Source: Promethearchaeota archaeon
GTDB lineage: Archaea > Asgardarchaeota > Lokiarchaeia > Sigyniarchaeales > SOKP01
Reading direction: 5' to 3'
Assembly (NCBI GenBank): GCA_016926735.1
Contig: JAFGOA010000014.1
Location: 28,112-92,111 of the forward strand
DNA length: 64,000 bases
The notes beneath the pieces are model-generated. The model saw only the letters and a list, made by a program, of their open reading frames with translations. It was not told where the DNA came from and made no database searches. Shown here one piece after another: positions 44,002-63,386 of the stretch; the first letter of the stretch is position 1, and each line of letters begins with the position of its first letter. A program made the translations under genes and the position numbers.

Positions 44002-46005
44002 TTATGGTAGTGCTTGTCCACCATCATCTATAATCCAACTATACGTATTTATAAGAATTTCTCTTGCAGTAGCAGCAGTACCTGCGCTATATTGAGAGGT
44101 TCCTGCATGAAAAAATACATTATGTTGGAGATTTAATTGTGACCATCCAATTAAAAGATTATCATAATTAGGAGTGGATAAAATAGCACCTTGAAACATG
44201 TATAACATACTATATACTCTTGAGACATTCCAACTTCCAATATCTTGGTTAAAGGTAGTAGCATAATAGAACATATACCTCATATCTCTGACATTTGAAA
44301 CATTCCAATTTCCAATATCTTGGTTAAAGGCAGTAGCTCTATAGAATATATACCTCATATCTTCTACATTTGAAACATTCCAATTTCCAATATCTTGGTT
44401 AAAGGCAGTAGCATAATCGAACATATAACTCATATCTCGGGTATTTGAAACATCCCAATTACCAATGTCTTGATTGAAAGAATTTGCTAACCGGAACATA
44501 CAACTCATATCTCTGACATTTGAAACATTCCATTCTCCAATATCTTGATCGAATGAATTAGCATTCCCAAACATATAACTCATATCTCGGGTATTTGAAA
44601 CATCCCAATTACCAATATCTTGGTTAAAGGTAGTAGCATAATAGAACATATAACTCATATCTCTAACATTTGAAACATTCCAACCACCAATATCTTGATC
44701 GAATGAATTAGCATTCCCAAACATATAACTCATATCTCGGGTATTTGAAACATTCCAACCACCAATATCTTGATCGAATGATTTAACATTCGTGAACATA
44801 TAACTCATATCTCTGACATTTGAAACATTCCAACCACCAATATCTTGGTTGAAGGAAGTAACGCTACGGAACATAGACCCCATATCTGCAACATTAAAAA
44901 CATTCCAATCTCCAATATCTTGGTTAAATGAATTAGCTTCACAGAACATATAACTCATATCTCTGACATTTGAAACATTCCAATCTCCAATATCTTGGTT
45001 AAATGAAGTTGCGTAATAGAACATAGACCCCATATCTGCGACATTAGAAACATTCCAATCTCCAATATCTTGGTTAAATGAAGTAGTACTATAGAACATA
45101 TAACTCATATCTCTGACATTTGAAACATTCCAATCTCCAATATCTTGGTTAAATGTAGTCGCGTAATAGAACATACGGCGCATACTTTCAATCTTAGAGA
45201 CATTCCAATTATTTAAATTCCCTTTATTACCAAGATCAGTACAACTACTGAACATATTATTTAGATTTGTTGTTCCAGTTAAGTCCAGACTATCCGTAGC
45301 AGCAAGAATTAAGTTAGAACATCCGTCAAAATAGTAACCAGAATTACCCACTCTTAAATCACCCCATTGTTGAATTTCAAGTAATTTTAAATGATCACCA
45401 TTATCATTAAAACACCACCCTATCAAGCTACCATAAATCTCAATGGTATATTCTCCTTCTGAAACATATGTATGAGTTACTTCTTCTTGATTCCAACTTG
45501 TAATAGTATCATTATTTCCATCACCCCAATCTACAATAAAATCATATGTTCCATCTGATTCCAATGGTAGTCTAATTTGATTACTATTACTCGAACCACT
45601 ACTCGTTAATATAGTATCCCATATAGATATAAAAGGTGAATCAGATTCTATTGCATCAATGATAAATGAAACTGATGCCTTTCCTATATTTCCTGCTGAA
45701 TCATTTGCCCAAGCAGTTATAGTATTTAAACCTTCATTAAAAATAATAGAATATGGTGAGGTATAAGTTATATTTGCACCATCATTCCATTTATACCAGA
45801 TAGTATCGATTGCGATATTATCTGATGCTGAAATCTCTAATAATTGACTAGCGTCATAATAAGTAGTGCTTATTGGATTTTCAATTTGTACCTTTGGGGA
45901 AGTTGTATCCTCATCATTCAATTGTGTTATATAAAAAAACAATCCGATAATTGAACTAAGTATGATAATAAATATTAGACTTAGAAATTTTATATTTTTT
46001 TTCAT
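44002..46005 (-). CDS. BspA-like/DUF285 surface repeat protein with N-terminal signal anchor
   Basis: MKKNIKFLSLIFIIILSSIIGLFFYIT anchor; Ig-like segment; thirteen 25-aa units FNQDIGDWNVSNVRDMSYMFYSTTS. Confidence 0.92.
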   Translation of the reverse strand: MKKNIKFLSLIFIIILSSIIGLFFYITQLNDEDTTSPKVQIENPISTTYYDASQLLEISASDNIAIDTIWYKWNDGANITYTSPYSIIFNEGLNTITAWANDSAGNIGKASVSFIIDAIESDSPFISIWDTILTSSGSSNSNQIRLPLESDGTYDFIVDWGDGNNDTITSWNQEEVTHTYVSEGEYTIEIYGSLIGWCFNDNGDHLKLLEIQQWGDLRVGNSGYYFDGCSNLILAATDSLDLTGTTNLNNMFSSCTDLGNKGNLNNWNVSKIESMRRMFYYATTFNQDIGDWNVSNVRDMSYMFYSTTSFNQDIGDWNVSNVADMGSMFYYATSFNQDIGDWNVSNVRDMSYMFCEANSFNQDIGDWNVFNVADMGSMFRSVTSFNQDIGGWNVSNVRDMSYMFTNVKSFDQDIGGWNVSNTRDMSYMFGNANSFDQDIGGWNVSNVRDMSYMFYYATTFNQDIGNWDVSNTRDMSYMFGNANSFDQDIGEWNVSNVRDMSCMFRLANSFNQDIGNWDVSNTRDMSYMFDYATAFNQDIGNWNVSNVEDMRYIFYRATAFNQDIGNWNVSNVRDMRYMFYYATTFNQDIGSWNVSRVYSMLYMFQGAILSTPNYDNLLIGWSQLNLQHNVFFHAGTSQYSAGTAATAREILINTYSWIIDDGGQALP
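44225..45170 (-). repeat. Thirteen tandem 75-bp coding repeats (DUF285 units)
   Basis: Counted 13 F(N/D)QDIGxW(N/D)VSN units in the translation; repeated caatctccaatatcttggttaaatga at nucleotide level. Confidence 0.9.
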
Positions 46006-47685: not shown

Positions 47686-47782
47686 GCCTTTGTAACTCAG
47701 TTCGTAGAGTGATTGATTCGTAATCAAAATATATAATTGACGTGATATCAATTTGCCGGGGGTTCAATTCCCCCCAGAGGCT
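47686..47782 (+). tRNA. tRNA-Thr (anticodon CGT) with a ~24-nt intron at the canonical 37/38 position
   Basis: Acceptor GCCTTTG/CAGAGGC, T-arm GGGGG TTCAATT CCCCC, anticodon arm ATTGA TTCGTAA + TCAAT after removing tcaaaatatataattgacgtgata. Confidence 0.85.
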
Positions 47783-53908: not shown

Positions 53909-54105
53909 GCGGGGGTTGCCAAGAGCCCTAGATGAAAAAACTAGCATCTATTCAACAGATCTTAATGCTCAATAATCGAGCAGGCTGGAAATCTGGTCTA
54001 CGGCGTTGCGTTGAGGTCGCAATGGCAATGGCATAAAAGAGAAAAAAAAAGAAAAATATTTTTGCCGCCAACAGGCCTTCGTGGGTTCGAATCCCACCTC
54101 CCGCA
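53909..54105 (+). tRNA. tRNA-Leu (anticodon GAG) apparently interrupted by two non-canonical introns (D-arm and variable arm)
   Basis: 5' GCGGGGGTTGCCAAG and 3' GTGGGTTCGAATCCCACCTCCCGCA pair (GCGGGGG/CTCCCGC, T-stem GTGGG/CCCAC); anticodon arm TTGCG TTGAGGT CGCAA (54006..54022) uninterrupted; ~69 nt extra in the D-arm and ~40-45 nt extra in the variable arm. Confidence 0.85.
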
Positions 54106-58226: not shown

Positions 58227-61200
58227 TTAAAAAAAATCAGATAATTTCTGTTGTTTGATTTTAGGATTATTTGTAAGACTTGTAACATATTCTTCAATTA
58301 ATTCCATTCGTTGATGGGTATAAGCATCTAATTTAAAGTCTTCACATAATTTAATTGCTCTATCAATATATTTTTCAATACCTCCTCGATTTACGGTTAA
58401 AATAATTTTATTTCCACATTTAGGGCATTTTCCTGAATTTGAAATTGGAGGGCGCCGATATTTAGTATTACATTTAACACATCTAAATGTTTGAACTGAG
58501 AATTTCCTGAGATTTCCTAAAATATCTGGATTAAAGTGTGTTGATAATATTTTACTCGCTACGTTTTTTGCATCAACAGCTTTTATAATTTTAGCAAGAT
58601 GTAATTGTGCTTCTATTTTATCATCCATTGATTCATGCAATTTATAAGCAGTAACTTTAGGGCCTTGGTTGATATCATCTGTAGGTATATTATATCCAAT
58701 ATTCTCATATTGTTCCTCAGTTCCTAATTTATTTTTGACAAGATTCATTATTTTTTCAATTTCATTAGGAGATGCATAACGTTGAGTTGCCTCATAAAAC
58801 TCTAAAGGATATCTAAATAAGGTATCAACATTATGAGCCTCACTATCGATCTCATTAGGATCTAATAATGTGCTGATTACCAAAGTAGCATCCATCCTAC
58901 CACCAATCTTACTTGGAAGATAATTTCTTGAGAAGTTGAGAAGCGGATCTAAGAGAAGCATAACTGCATCCTCATCTCCGTCGCACTGCGCTGTGATAAG
59001 CCCATTTAAAAGCGATATATTGTGATATTCCCAAATTTGATAATTTTTATTCACTATTTCTAAACAATATGAGGGATATTTATAAGAATTTGTTTCAATC
59101 TTTTTTATTTTATCTCCAAAAAAATCTTCACTTATTTTAGGAAATTTTCTGGGTTCGGGAAAATTATTTTTTAATATTATATTTAAATTCTTTTTCTTTT
59201 TTTTATGTTTTAAATCAAGATGTTGTAATAATAAATCATTTTCCATTCCTGGTAAAACTACTTGATATAGAGGATTATTTTTTTTTGGTTCTTTTCCTAG
59301 TTCTTTATATCTTTCTAAAATTTTCTTTCCATATCGTCCTCCCTTACCAATAATAATTCTAGCTTTTATTTTTAATGTTGAGAATAAAAAACAATAATCT
59401 TTTGATAGTTTTCTATTGCCTGTATATATCGATGTTCTTGTTGTTCTGGGAATAATCGAACAATTACCATCAATGAGAGCTGATATGAATGGATATTTAT
59501 ATTGTTTAGGTAGACTATAAATAAATGTAGGAATTCGTTTTGAAAGAGCGGTTAATCCCGTTTTCCAAGCATATGCAAAAAGATAAGCATGAATTCTTCC
59601 TGAATGAACAAGTTGTTCATTATCTGTTTGATGATACGGTTCTGATTCAAAAAGACTGATAATTAATTGTCTCACATGTTCTCTTAAATCGAGATTTGGA
59701 ACACTTATATTTATTTGATAAGCACTAGGTTCATCTCGAATATAACCTTCAGAGATATAATATCCTAGATACCTCATTAAATTTGTATTAAATTTTAAAT
59801 AAGGATTTATTGTATAATCATCTCTTGCCATTCCTAAGCGGCATTCTTTTGGAATTTCGTTCCATTCAAATATTCTTTTTTTATGTAAACTTTCAAGATG
59901 ACTTAGAGGAATAGAATTATACCAATCATATTTTAATGGATCTTTATATGGTTTTGATGGTAGAATCTTTTTTATTAATATTCTTATATCTCCAGGAATT
60001 CTTTGATATTCTTTTGAACTATTTAATCTTTTAATCCTTTTTCCATAACGTATGATTATTTGTTGTATCCAATTTGAAGCATTTCTTAATCTTACATTTT
60101 GTTTAAATTTATTAAACTTAGGATTATTTGGTAAATGAAGAGAAAGTTCTTCTAATATATTTATAAATTCAGGTGGATTATTTATTGGTAAATTTGGATT
60201 GATAAGGTGAGGTAAAATATCCCCTTCTTTCAGAAATTTTGCCCTTATTTTTTCAATAGAGTTTTTTTCTTCATTCCAAATTATCATTTTATGATCTGGG
60301 GTTACTTTTATGAATCTTCCCGTTTGGGTTTTAATTTGAATCCATTGATCACTTTGCCCCTTTATCCAATATTTAATGGGTTGGAAAATTGCTTTTTTTG
60401 TAATTGGATCAATACTAATTACTCTCCAATTTTTATAGAGATTTTCGACCTCAATAGTTCCAAAATCATCAATTATTTTTGTTTTAGCACCTTTGTGAAT
60501 CAATTCTTCAACAATATCACCTATATTATTTAGTATGATTTGTTCTTTATCACTATCCCAAATAATAATTTCTTCATTCCCTGATAAACAATTTCTTCTT
60601 TTTGCAGCATGCCAATATGGATGGGCATAAATAGATCTTGCTGGTGAAAATCCAATAATTCTGCCAATAATTCCTGCACTTGTGTGAGGAGCAAGTCCAA
60701 CAGTTAAATGTCCAATAAGATCATCTCTATTTTCAACATTATAATATCGGTCTAAATGATAAAAATGCTCTAGTTCATCATCTAAGAACTTAGCCACTTT
60801 AACGAGATATTCCGCACAATCTTCTGAAAGTAATATATCCTGAACATTTAATTCGATAATTTGATTTTCATTTTCAAGGATATTTCCTTTATAATCATGC
60901 TTATAACCCAATTCTCTGAGTTTTTCAAGAGAGACGCCTATTTCTTTCGGTTTAAAATGTGTTAATGGAATATCTGTAGCATCATATCTTATTTCAGCTG
61001 TTTTATATACTAATACATCATTTTTTGCCCTTAAAATGCCTTTTTCAATAGGTTCTGGTACTTTAAAAGCATTTGTTAATCCAAAAATCCCTTTTAGATT
61101 TGATGGAATTTGCATTTTCAATTTTTTGGATATGAAATTCATATATACTCTTATATTAAAATTCTTTTTAAGGGAAGGTTTAATCAATTCATTACATTTA

Positions 61201-63386
61201 GGACAGTTCGTGGTTTGTTCAGGATCAACTTTTTCATATGTAGTTTTACATTTTGGACATATTGATCTTAACTCAGTGTGAGAATTACATTTTGGACATA
61301 TATTAAACATGGTTATACTATTACATTTAGGACACTTTCTCCTACATACTTCAATAGAAATTTCCCCTTTTTTTACATTCTCTTCCTTTTGTATATTATT
61401 TTTTTTATTTTTTATACCAAGTTTCATTCCAATATCCCCAAATTTATCAAATCTCTTCGTATTTTCAACTGCATCTCCAACCAGTCTTGTATTTCCTACA
61501 ATCTCACTTAAAGGGAATAATGTATGAATGCCTTTCATGGTTTTTCTTTCTGATTTTTCTGGTCTTCCCATACGAGATCCTACAAAATAAGGTGCTTTAT
61601 TTTTTATTTTAATTGAAGAGAATTTACTAAAATAGGTAAATATATCCTCTTCTTTCTCAATCTCTATATTTTTATATTTAGAAAGATTAAAAACCTCAAT
61701 ATAAATTGTATTCATTTCTGAATCAAAATAGATGTGATTATCTTTAATTGTATGAAGGATGAAAGCTTTCTCAAGAATTTTTTTTATTGTTTTTTCATTT
61801 GGGATAATAATAGATTTTTCATCTTTGTTATATCCTTTTTTAAATTCTTCTCTAAGAATTTTAAGTTCCTCAACATTTAAATTATACCAATAATCAAGAT
61901 ATTTTGGATGTAATGGAATACTATATTCCAATGATAATTTAATTGCTAATTCTGGTGATGGAATATTCTCAAAGGGCTCATCTATATATTTTTTGAAATC
62001 ATCGATTTTTTCTTTTTTTTCTCTAAGGGTTTTTTTTAATTCTAAGCTCCACCATTCCTCAACATAACCAGATGGAATTAATTTATGATTATTTTCTGAA
62101 AATTCACCATAACCAAATAGGATATCACCAATAAAAAGAATTTTTTTTATATTTGGGAAGATCTTTTGAGCTTTCTTAACATTATTAACTTGAATAACAT
62201 CTCCATTTTTTAGTTTTACAATTGGTGGTTCAATTGAGGATACTGGAGACACACTCGTACTTTTCCCTGGTCTTTCAATTCTTAATTGGGTTCCAATAGC
62301 TATAAAATTATCTAATAATACCATTGAAGCCGGATGAATTCCTCCAGCAGCCAAACCTGTATTTCTTGAACGACCATATCTTAATCTATGGCCTCCAATA
62401 CGGGATGGATGACTGAATACGGGTCTTCCAGCAATAATATCTGCAATATATTTTGGATTAGGAACAATTTGATTTTTTCTTTCTTTCTTTTGTTTTACCT
62501 CTTTTTCTAGGTTATCTTTTTGTTTTTCTTTATGTGCAATGTTTTTTATTTCACCAAGCCAATCCCATCCCTCTAATTTCATTATATTTGCTATTTTAAG
62601 AAGTTTTGATGATTTTGATAAGATTCCATCATTTAGCACTAAACAAGCACCTCCCCGAATTTTATTTGTTTCTACTCTTGGAAGGTCTCTAAAAGCTGAT
62701 ACTTCTTCTTCTTCCGTAGAATCACCATTTATTTCAACAGGAAGATGTTCAACGGCAAATCGTATTTCATTATTCGTAGATGGATATTGTAAATGTACTC
62801 TTCTATCATACATTTTAACTTCCTCAACATATCTGCCAATTTCTCCTTCTGTTGCTTCATATTTTGGAATATTTGATTTATTTCTTACAAAATCTGCAAT
62901 TAACAAACATAATCCTGCTGTAGTCCCTCCAGCGGCTCTAATTGGACCTGCAAAATATAAAGAAAGATATCTCCTCCCTTGCTGATCCGTTTTTATTAGT
63001 ATTTTAGATATCCCTTCTAAAGGAGCACTTACAACTCCCATAGTTTTTATAGCTAAGCCTACTCTAATAGCTCTTTCAACTCTATCATCTAAATTTTGAA
63101 TATTTCCAATTTTTTCCTCTAAAATATCTGAAACAACCTGAAAAACAATGAAATCTTCACTTTTACCCTCTGTTTTTAATTTTCGAATTAAATCAGCAAC
63201 GCCTTGTGGTCCAACTAATTTTTCTACTCTACCTGCTAAATCTTTTGCTTGAGGAGATTCTACAAAAATTTCGGGATCAAATCCTTTATTTCTAGCTTCT
63301 TCTGCAATTTTATAACTTTGTTTTATTTTTTCTTGAAGATTGTTGAAATATTCTTCCATTTCTTTACTCATTACAACCATGATCAA
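58227..63386 (-). CDS. polC: DNA polymerase D large subunit (DP2), with intein
   Basis: 1719 aa; AGPIRAAGGTTAGLCLLIADFVR, RKCPKCNS zinc motifs, HTSAGIIGRIIGFSPARSIYAHPYWHAAKRRN | CDGDEDAVMLLLDPLLNFSRNYLPSKIGGRMDATLVIS; C-terminal PIP-like QQKLSDFF. Confidence 0.97.
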   Translation of the reverse strand: MIMVVMSKEMEEYFNNLQEKIKQSYKIAEEARNKGFDPEIFVESPQAKDLAGRVEKLVGPQGVADLIRKLKTEGKSEDFIVFQVVSDILEEKIGNIQNLDDRVERAIRVGLAIKTMGVVSAPLEGISKILIKTDQQGRRYLSLYFAGPIRAAGGTTAGLCLLIADFVRNKSNIPKYEATEGEIGRYVEEVKMYDRRVHLQYPSTNNEIRFAVEHLPVEINGDSTEEEEVSAFRDLPRVETNKIRGGACLVLNDGILSKSSKLLKIANIMKLEGWDWLGEIKNIAHKEKQKDNLEKEVKQKKERKNQIVPNPKYIADIIAGRPVFSHPSRIGGHRLRYGRSRNTGLAAGGIHPASMVLLDNFIAIGTQLRIERPGKSTSVSPVSSIEPPIVKLKNGDVIQVNNVKKAQKIFPNIKKILFIGDILFGYGEFSENNHKLIPSGYVEEWWSLELKKTLREKKEKIDDFKKYIDEPFENIPSPELAIKLSLEYSIPLHPKYLDYWYNLNVEELKILREEFKKGYNKDEKSIIIPNEKTIKKILEKAFILHTIKDNHIYFDSEMNTIYIEVFNLSKYKNIEIEKEEDIFTYFSKFSSIKIKNKAPYFVGSRMGRPEKSERKTMKGIHTLFPLSEIVGNTRLVGDAVENTKRFDKFGDIGMKLGIKNKKNNIQKEENVKKGEISIEVCRRKCPKCNSITMFNICPKCNSHTELRSICPKCKTTYEKVDPEQTTNCPKCNELIKPSLKKNFNIRVYMNFISKKLKMQIPSNLKGIFGLTNAFKVPEPIEKGILRAKNDVLVYKTAEIRYDATDIPLTHFKPKEIGVSLEKLRELGYKHDYKGNILENENQIIELNVQDILLSEDCAEYLVKVAKFLDDELEHFYHLDRYYNVENRDDLIGHLTVGLAPHTSAGIIGRIIGFSPARSIYAHPYWHAAKRRNCLSGNEEIIIWDSDKEQIILNNIGDIVEELIHKGAKTKIIDDFGTIEVENLYKNWRVISIDPITKKAIFQPIKYWIKGQSDQWIQIKTQTGRFIKVTPDHKMIIWNEEKNSIEKIRAKFLKEGDILPHLINPNLPINNPPEFINILEELSLHLPNNPKFNKFKQNVRLRNASNWIQQIIIRYGKRIKRLNSSKEYQRIPGDIRILIKKILPSKPYKDPLKYDWYNSIPLSHLESLHKKRIFEWNEIPKECRLGMARDDYTINPYLKFNTNLMRYLGYYISEGYIRDEPSAYQINISVPNLDLREHVRQLIISLFESEPYHQTDNEQLVHSGRIHAYLFAYAWKTGLTALSKRIPTFIYSLPKQYKYPFISALIDGNCSIIPRTTRTSIYTGNRKLSKDYCFLFSTLKIKARIIIGKGGRYGKKILERYKELGKEPKKNNPLYQVVLPGMENDLLLQHLDLKHKKKKKNLNIILKNNFPEPRKFPKISEDFFGDKIKKIETNSYKYPSYCLEIVNKNYQIWEYHNISLLNGLITAQCDGDEDAVMLLLDPLLNFSRNYLPSKIGGRMDATLVISTLLDPNEIDSEAHNVDTLFRYPLEFYEATQRYASPNEIEKIMNLVKNKLGTEEQYENIGYNIPTDDINQGPKVTAYKLHESMDDKIEAQLHLAKIIKAVDAKNVASKILSTHFNPDILGNLRKFSVQTFRCVKCNTKYRRPPISNSGKCPKCGNKIILTVNRGGIEKYIDRAIKLCEDFKLDAYTHQRMELIEEYVTSLTNNPKIKQQKLSDFF
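58986..60590 (-). mobile_element. Intein (535 aa) with LAGLIDADG-type homing endonuclease motifs inside DP2
   Basis: Starts CLSGNEEIII after AAKRRN; VTPDHKMII block B-like; LGYYISEGYI and FISALIDGN LAGLIDADG-like motifs; ends SLLNGLITAQ before CDGDED. Frame and coordinates checked (1605 nt). Confidence 0.93.

What the first reader, a model, noticed from the sequence alone, without database searches (positions are those of the whole stretch)
53909..54105. tRNA-Leu(GAG) gene with two non-canonical introns and no canonical one
Seen: clear tRNA-Leu ends and an uninterrupted anticodon arm TTGCG-TTGAGGT-CGCAA, yet the D-arm is interrupted by ~69 nt (agccctagatg...ggctggaaat) and the variable arm by ~40-45 nt (aatggcataaaagag...tttttgccg). 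The second shows a helix-bulge-helix-like pairing GGCA(t)aaaa/ttttTGCC with outer TGG/CCA. Multi-intron tRNAs are known in Thermoproteales; finding one here suggests broad-specificity splicing endonuclease activity.
Basis: partly seen in the sequence, partly recalled or inferred. Interest (0 to 1): 0.72.

Follow-up and report, generated by a model that had tools for sequence, protein, structure and literature searches.

The report
Lokiarchaeal tRNA-Leu gene with two introns
A leucine transfer-RNA gene of a Lokiarchaeon is interrupted twice, in the D-arm and in the variable arm, by short introns of the kind that archaea cut out with a dedicated RNA-splicing enzyme; such tRNAs are known, but Lokiarchaea turn out to push the design further (four or five introns in a sister tRNA gene) and carry the enzyme type that explains it.

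Summary
At 53909-54105 (+) lies a tRNA-Leu(GAG) gene of a Lokiarchaeon, split into exons 53909-53923, 53992-54028 and 54073-54105. Removing a 68-nt D-arm intron (53924-53991) and a 44-nt variable-arm intron (54029-54072) gives an 85-nt class II tRNA-Leu(GAG), the length of every spliced Lokiarchaeal homologue examined. ARAGORN misses the gene in place but calls the spliced sequence Leu(GAG) with all arms. Both junctions form relaxed bulge-helix-bulge motifs cut inside 3-nt bulges. The D-arm intron sits at the same site in 6 of 65 family genomes, with compensatory changes in its inner helix. No second Leu(GAG) gene was found. The genome encodes a catalytic and a non-catalytic EndA subunit, the (alpha-beta)2 type. 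Multi-intron tRNAs are known in Thermoproteales and two other Asgard lineages, so the gene is a new member of a known kind. More unusual: this genome's tRNA-Leu(TAA) has four introns, two stacked at one splice site; the congener's has five, against a published maximum of three.

The parts
53909..53923 (+). exon 1 of tRNA-Leu(GAG): acceptor 5' strand GCGGGGG, TT, D-stem GCC, AAG
   Evidence: 5' half GCGGGNNTTGCCAAG shared with own Leu(TAG) and Leu(CAG) genes
53924..53991 (+). D-arm intron, 68 nt (AGCCCTAG...GGCTGGAAA)
   Evidence: same site in G001, G030, G035, G039, G045
53918..53927 (+). 5' side of the D-arm BHB-like motif: central strand GCCA (53918-53921), bulge AG|A (53922-53924), inner helix GCC (53925-53927)
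53983..53992 (+). 3' side of the D-arm motif: inner helix GGC (53983-53985), central strand TGGA (53986-53989), bulge AA|T (53990-53992)
53992..54028 (+). exon 2: rest of D-arm, uninterrupted anticodon arm TTGCG-TTGAGGT-CGCAA (anticodon GAG), start of variable arm TGGCAA
54029..54072 (+). variable-arm intron, 44 nt (TGGCATAAAAG...TTTTTGCCGCCAAC)
   Evidence: same site in the partial second Leu(GAG) copy of G001 and in Leu(TAA) genes of five relatives
54023..54033 (+). 5' side of the variable-arm BHB-like motif: central TGGC (54023-54026), bulge AA|T (54027-54029), inner helix GGCA (54030-54033)
54063..54073 (+). 3' side of the variable-arm motif: inner helix TGCC (54063-54066), central GCCA (54067-54070), bulge AC|A (54071-54073)
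54073..54105 (+). exon 3: AGGCCTTC (end of variable arm), T-arm GTGGG-TTCGAAT-CCCAC, acceptor 3' strand CTCCCGC, discriminator A; no encoded CCA

Best explanation
This is the Lokiarchaeon's working tRNA-Leu(GAG) gene. Its precursor carries two archaeal BHB-type introns outside the anticodon loop. In each, an exon 4-mer pairs with the intron (GCCA with TGGA in the D-arm, TGGC with GCCA in the variable arm), leaving two 3-nt bulges. A heterotetrameric EndA of catalytic alpha and structural beta subunits cuts after the second nucleotide of each bulge. A tRNA ligase of the RtcB type then joins the exons into an 85-nt class II tRNA that reads CUC/CUU. Shown here: the exon structure, the motifs, their conservation and covariation, and the EndA genes with their loop. 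Inferred: transcription, cleavage, ligation and charging.
For: Spliced product is a complete cloverleaf called Leu(GAG) by ARAGORN, 85 nt; all spliced Leu(GAG) and Leu(TAA) homologues examined are also exactly 85 nt. D-arm intron at the same site in 6 of 65 family genomes with 0 control matches; three inner-helix pairs change on both sides, 88.9% of cells paired versus 22-47% for slid versions. The congener G001 has a Leu(GAG) copy with the D-arm intron and no variable-arm intron, and another, partial copy with the variable-arm intron, so each insert behaves as a separable unit. Two EndA genes, catalytic and non-catalytic; loop Lys-Pro-[Arg/Lys] in 81 of 81 Asgard alpha sequences read; alpha model best matches crenarchaeal EndA alpha chains. 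No other Leu(GAG) gene found.
Against: No RNA data. D-arm motif is weak (3 of 4 central pairs, 3-bp inner helix in the window). The minimum-free-energy fold of the precursor alone does not show the D-arm motif. RtcB was not found in this assembly, though 138 of 148 phylum genomes including the congener have it, so a gap in a 238-contig MAG is likely.
Confidence: 0.93

Rival explanations
1. The gene is a decayed or dead tRNA locus interrupted by random insertions, with leucine CUC/CUU codons read by another tRNA.
For: The genome also has a compact, almost intronless tRNA array set with Leu(TAG), Leu(TAA), Leu(CAA); G001 has a nearby partial Leu(GAG) copy without a 5' half.
Against: All exon stems are intact and the product has exactly family length; splice motifs covary; no other Leu(GAG) gene found, and the arrays lack one.
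Confidence: 0.03
2. The locus is right but one insert boundary is shifted by a base, or the introns come out in an obligatory order, for example the variable-arm intron before the D-arm intron.
For: D-arm motif is relaxed and uses D-stem nucleotides GCC that also pair in the mature tRNA; ordered removal of tRNA introns is documented (PMC8450103).
Against: The chosen cuts are the only ones found by hand that give family exon letters, mature length and 3-nt bulges together; six homologues agree.
Confidence: 0.1
3. Chimeric assembly or contaminating contig rather than a real Lokiarchaeal gene.
For: Draft MAG, 238 contigs, 4.84% contamination.
Against: Gene lies inside a 92-kb contig; congener and other family genomes carry homologous introns; flanking genes are typical of Lokiarchaea (small GTPase fusion, DP2 polymerase).
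Confidence: 0.01

Closest known systems
Multi-intron tRNAs of Atabeyarchaeia and Freyarchaeia (Asgard; PMC11291895)
   Same: Asgard archaea; non-canonical positions; 92-95% of tRNA genes with introns and over half with several
   Different: Different Asgard classes; that paper's main text does not treat EndA, stacked introns, or four or five introns in one gene; its supplement was not readable here
Multi-intron tRNAs of Thermoproteales (Pyrobaculum; PMC8450103, PMC4033280)
   Same: Several introns per tRNA, relaxed BHB motifs, (alpha-beta)2 EndA
   Different: Thermophilic Crenarchaeota; published maximum three introns per gene; here four in the same genome's Leu(TAA) and five in the congener's
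[quoted passage not shown]
   Same: Introns at the same three arms; multi-intron Leu(UAA); variation between close relatives and a nearby tRNA fragment
   Different: Aigarchaeota; there tied to a mobile element, not seen here
Aeropyrum pernix (alpha-beta)2 EndA with Crenarchaea-specific loop (PDB 3p1z/3ajv; PMC12397907)
   Same: Catalytic triad; loop K44-P45-R46 aligned without gaps to Lys61-Pro62-Arg63 here
   Different: Found in Lokiarchaeia and other Asgard genomes, so not confined to Crenarchaeota; about 40% identical

Membership tests
Archaeal BHB-type (EndA-spliced) tRNA intron | Removal yields a complete tRNA cloverleaf of family length | tested here: met
   85-nt Leu(GAG)
Archaeal BHB-type (EndA-spliced) tRNA intron | 4-bp central helix flanked by two 3-nt bulges with cuts inside the bulges (variable-arm intron) | tested here: met
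   TGGC/GCCA, bulges AA|T and AC|A, 13 of 200,000 shuffles
Archaeal BHB-type (EndA-spliced) tRNA intron | Same motif at the D-arm intron | tested here: inconclusive
   3 of 4 central pairs plus a G.A; inner helix covaries across six genomes: relaxed form only
Archaeal BHB-type (EndA-spliced) tRNA intron | Cleaved by EndA and ligated in vivo | not testable with these tools
   No RNA data
Strict BHB (hBHBh') | Outer helix next to the 3' bulge | tested here: not met
   No contiguous exon-exon outer helix found by hand at either site; relaxed HBh'-like
(alpha-beta)2 EndA with Crenarchaea-specific loop | One catalytic and one non-catalytic subunit gene | tested here: met
   L001 has Tyr/His/Lys; L002 has Phe for Tyr and lacks the His
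(alpha-beta)2 EndA with Crenarchaea-specific loop | Extra loop with Lys-Pro-[Arg/Lys] in the catalytic subunit | tested here: met
   18 residues between G54 and L73 versus 6 in M. jannaschii; 81 of 81 Asgard alphas
(alpha-beta)2 EndA with Crenarchaea-specific loop | Heterotetramer assembly and activity on relaxed motifs | not testable with these tools
   Needs purified enzyme

The most novel reading that the evidence does not exclude
Lokiarchaeia exceed the recorded complexity of tRNA genes: up to five introns in one gene (G001 Leu(TAA)), including two stacked at one splice site so that removal of the first rebuilds the motif of the second. This is supported by a loop-bearing (alpha-beta)2 EndA found across the Asgard genomes sampled, which would make the 'Crenarchaea-specific loop' older than Crenarchaeota and relevant to the origin of the eukaryotic TSEN.
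Probability: 0.5. Interest if true: 0.62.

Novelty: new member of a known kind. Interest (0 to 1): 0.42.

Why it matters
The tRNA finders used here miss this gene, so Lokiarchaeal tRNA sets are likely under-annotated. The loop thought specific to Crenarchaeota is present throughout the Asgard genomes sampled, the group from which eukaryotes are thought to stem, so the history of the eukaryotic tRNA-splicing enzyme can be tested directly. Close relatives that differ by single introns offer a natural series for studying how tRNA introns come and go.

Tried and rejected
Low-score Rfam matches over the gene are chance apart from its T-arm. Split tRNA in G001: a Leu(GAG) copy there lacks its 5' half; the only other 5' halves found belong to complete Leu(TAG) and Leu(CAG) genes, so no split partner was found; it may be a remnant or an assembly branch. 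Absence of RtcB as biology: rejected after the phylum survey. The tRNA-rich contigs C157 and C42 as virus or contaminant: their neighbours are ordinary chromosomal genes such as SRP19, HypA and a semialdehyde dehydrogenase, and the congener has the array. An attempt to fit a tidy BHB to the Thr(CGT) intron failed at the thresholds used. Literature searches for tRNA introns in Lokiarchaeota returned no paper describing this, within an open-licence library only.

Full report
Identity of the host. The window is contig C69 of a 3.88-Mb draft genome (238 contigs, 99% complete, 4.84% contamination). Its EndA catalytic subunit is 88% identical to that of a Candidatus Lokiarchaeota MAG and 70-82% identical to dozens of others, so the host is a member of Lokiarchaeia. 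Neighbouring genes fit: a Ras-family GTPase fusion, a TruB/Cbf5-type pseudouridine synthase, and the DP2 polymerase with an intein.

The gene. The sequence at 53909-54105 has intact tRNA-Leu ends and an uninterrupted anticodon arm. ARAGORN does not report it, nor does Rfam's tRNA model reach its threshold. Comparison with the genome's own Leu(CAG) and Leu(TAG) genes (GCCAAG-TCTGGTC and a 14-nt variable region) and with Lokiarchaeal relatives fixes the exons as 53909-53923, 53992-54028 and 54073-54105. Joined, they give GCGGGGGTTGCCAAGTCTGGTCTACGGCGTTGCGTTGAGGTCGCAATGGCAAAGGCCTTCGTGGGTTCGAATCCCACCTCCCGCA, 85 nt, which ARAGORN reads as tRNA-Leu(gag) with every arm. All spliced Leu(GAG) and Leu(TAA) homologues decomposed here are also exactly 85 nt.

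The motifs. Variable-arm intron, 44 nt: exon TGGC pairs with GCCA, 3-nt bulges AA|T and AC|A, inner helix GGCA/TGCC. D-arm intron, 68 nt: exon GCCA faces TGGA (three pairs and a G.A), bulges AG|A and AA|T, inner helix GCC/GGC. With splice sites fixed and intron letters shuffled these arise in 13 and 262 of 200,000 trials. Neither has an outer helix, so both are relaxed motifs.

Conservation. A pattern for the D-arm intron matched 6 of 65 genomes of the family, in three genera, with no control match. On the five distinct junctions, three inner-helix pairs change on both sides, and 88.9% of cells pair against 22-47% when the partner is slid. Five sequences are few, and the junctions were aligned by construction, so this is good but not overwhelming. 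In the congener G001, one Leu(GAG) copy has the D-arm intron but an uninterrupted variable arm, and a partial second copy has the variable-arm intron with central TGGT/GCCA. Other family members have one to three introns at other sites. The variable-arm site used here is also used in Leu(TAA) genes of five relatives. Intron content thus turns over quickly.

The enzyme. Two EndA genes are present. L001 has the catalytic Tyr, His and Lys; L002 lacks the Tyr and His. Most of the 148 phylum genomes searched have two matches. L001 aligns without gaps to Aeropyrum pernix alpha through the loop bearing K44-P45-R46, which PMC12397907 and PMC6379350 tie to cleavage of relaxed motifs; M. jannaschii EndA, which lacks this loop, has 6 residues where L001 has 18. 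Lys-Pro-[Arg/Lys] is present in 81 of 81 Asgard alphas that could be read. An AlphaFold model of the nearest named relative's alpha, with Lokiarchaeal homologues, leaves exactly this loop (55-69) at low confidence and matches crenarchaeal alphas best. The ligase RtcB was not found in this draft but is in 138 of 148 relatives, congener included.

Uniqueness. Only three 5' halves of the type GCGGGNNTTGCCAAG occur in the genome, belonging to Leu(GAG), Leu(CAG) and Leu(TAG); no other detected tRNA gene has a GAG anticodon. Gaps in the draft could hide one.

Beyond the window. By my reading, at least 17 dispersed tRNA genes of this genome have introns, many outside 37/38. Leu(TAA) (G000:C188:51497-51712) has four: D-arm, two stacked at GGTCAA|, and T-loop; the congener's has a fifth in the variable arm. 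In the stacked pair, one-step removal leaves no inner helix, whereas removal of the upstream ~30-nt unit restores an inner helix of 4 pairs in five genomes, matching single introns in relatives. The upstream unit's own inner helix is short (1-3 pairs), so the counts of four and five rest partly on this reading. The published maximum given in PMC8450103 and PMC4033280 is three.

Verdict. Real, correctly read by the first stage, and most likely a functional two-intron tRNA. The kind is known, including in Asgard archaea (PMC11291895), so the gene itself is a new member. The loop in Asgard EndA and the four- and five-intron genes lift the interest somewhat.

Noticed in passing
window 47686-47782 (+): tRNA-Thr(CGT) gene with an intron-like insert 3' of the anticodon loop, seen by Rfam and ARAGORN's intron mode; a tidy BHB was not found.
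   Followed up: partly
G000:C188:51497-51712 (L201) and G001:C50:295-529 (L080): tRNA-Leu(TAA) genes with four and five introns, two stacked at one splice site.
   Followed up: yes
G000:C157 (L033, L180, L181) and C42 (L182): Compact arrays of 21 and 5 almost intronless tRNA genes on ordinary Lokiarchaeal contigs, beside a dispersed intron-rich set; the C157 array is shared with the congener at 72-75% identity and rare in other relatives.
   Followed up: partly
G001:C214:1-360 (L078) and C256:1-123 (L079): Second, partial Leu(GAG) copy preceded by an intron-like 3' end (GACC-AA|CGGCG) but no 5' half; remnant, split gene or assembly branch.
   Followed up: partly
EndA alpha, L001 and Asgard homologues: The Crenarchaea-specific loop motif Lys-Pro-[Arg/Lys] is in all 81 Asgard catalytic subunits read.
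   Followed up: yes
window 5913-40034 (+): One uninterrupted ORF of 11,373 codons, more than half the window.
   Followed up: no
window 58227-63386 (-): DNA polymerase D large subunit (DP2) gene with an intein.
   Followed up: no
window 44002-46005 (-): 667-aa protein with many near-identical 'DMSYMF...FNQDIGDWNVSNV' repeats.
   Followed up: no
G000 assembly: No RtcB found although nearly all relatives have it; probably an assembly gap.
   Followed up: yes
G000:C62:296-693 (L036): Two similar tRNA-like sequences in tandem, joined by ARAGORN into a spurious tRNA-Pyl.
   Followed up: no
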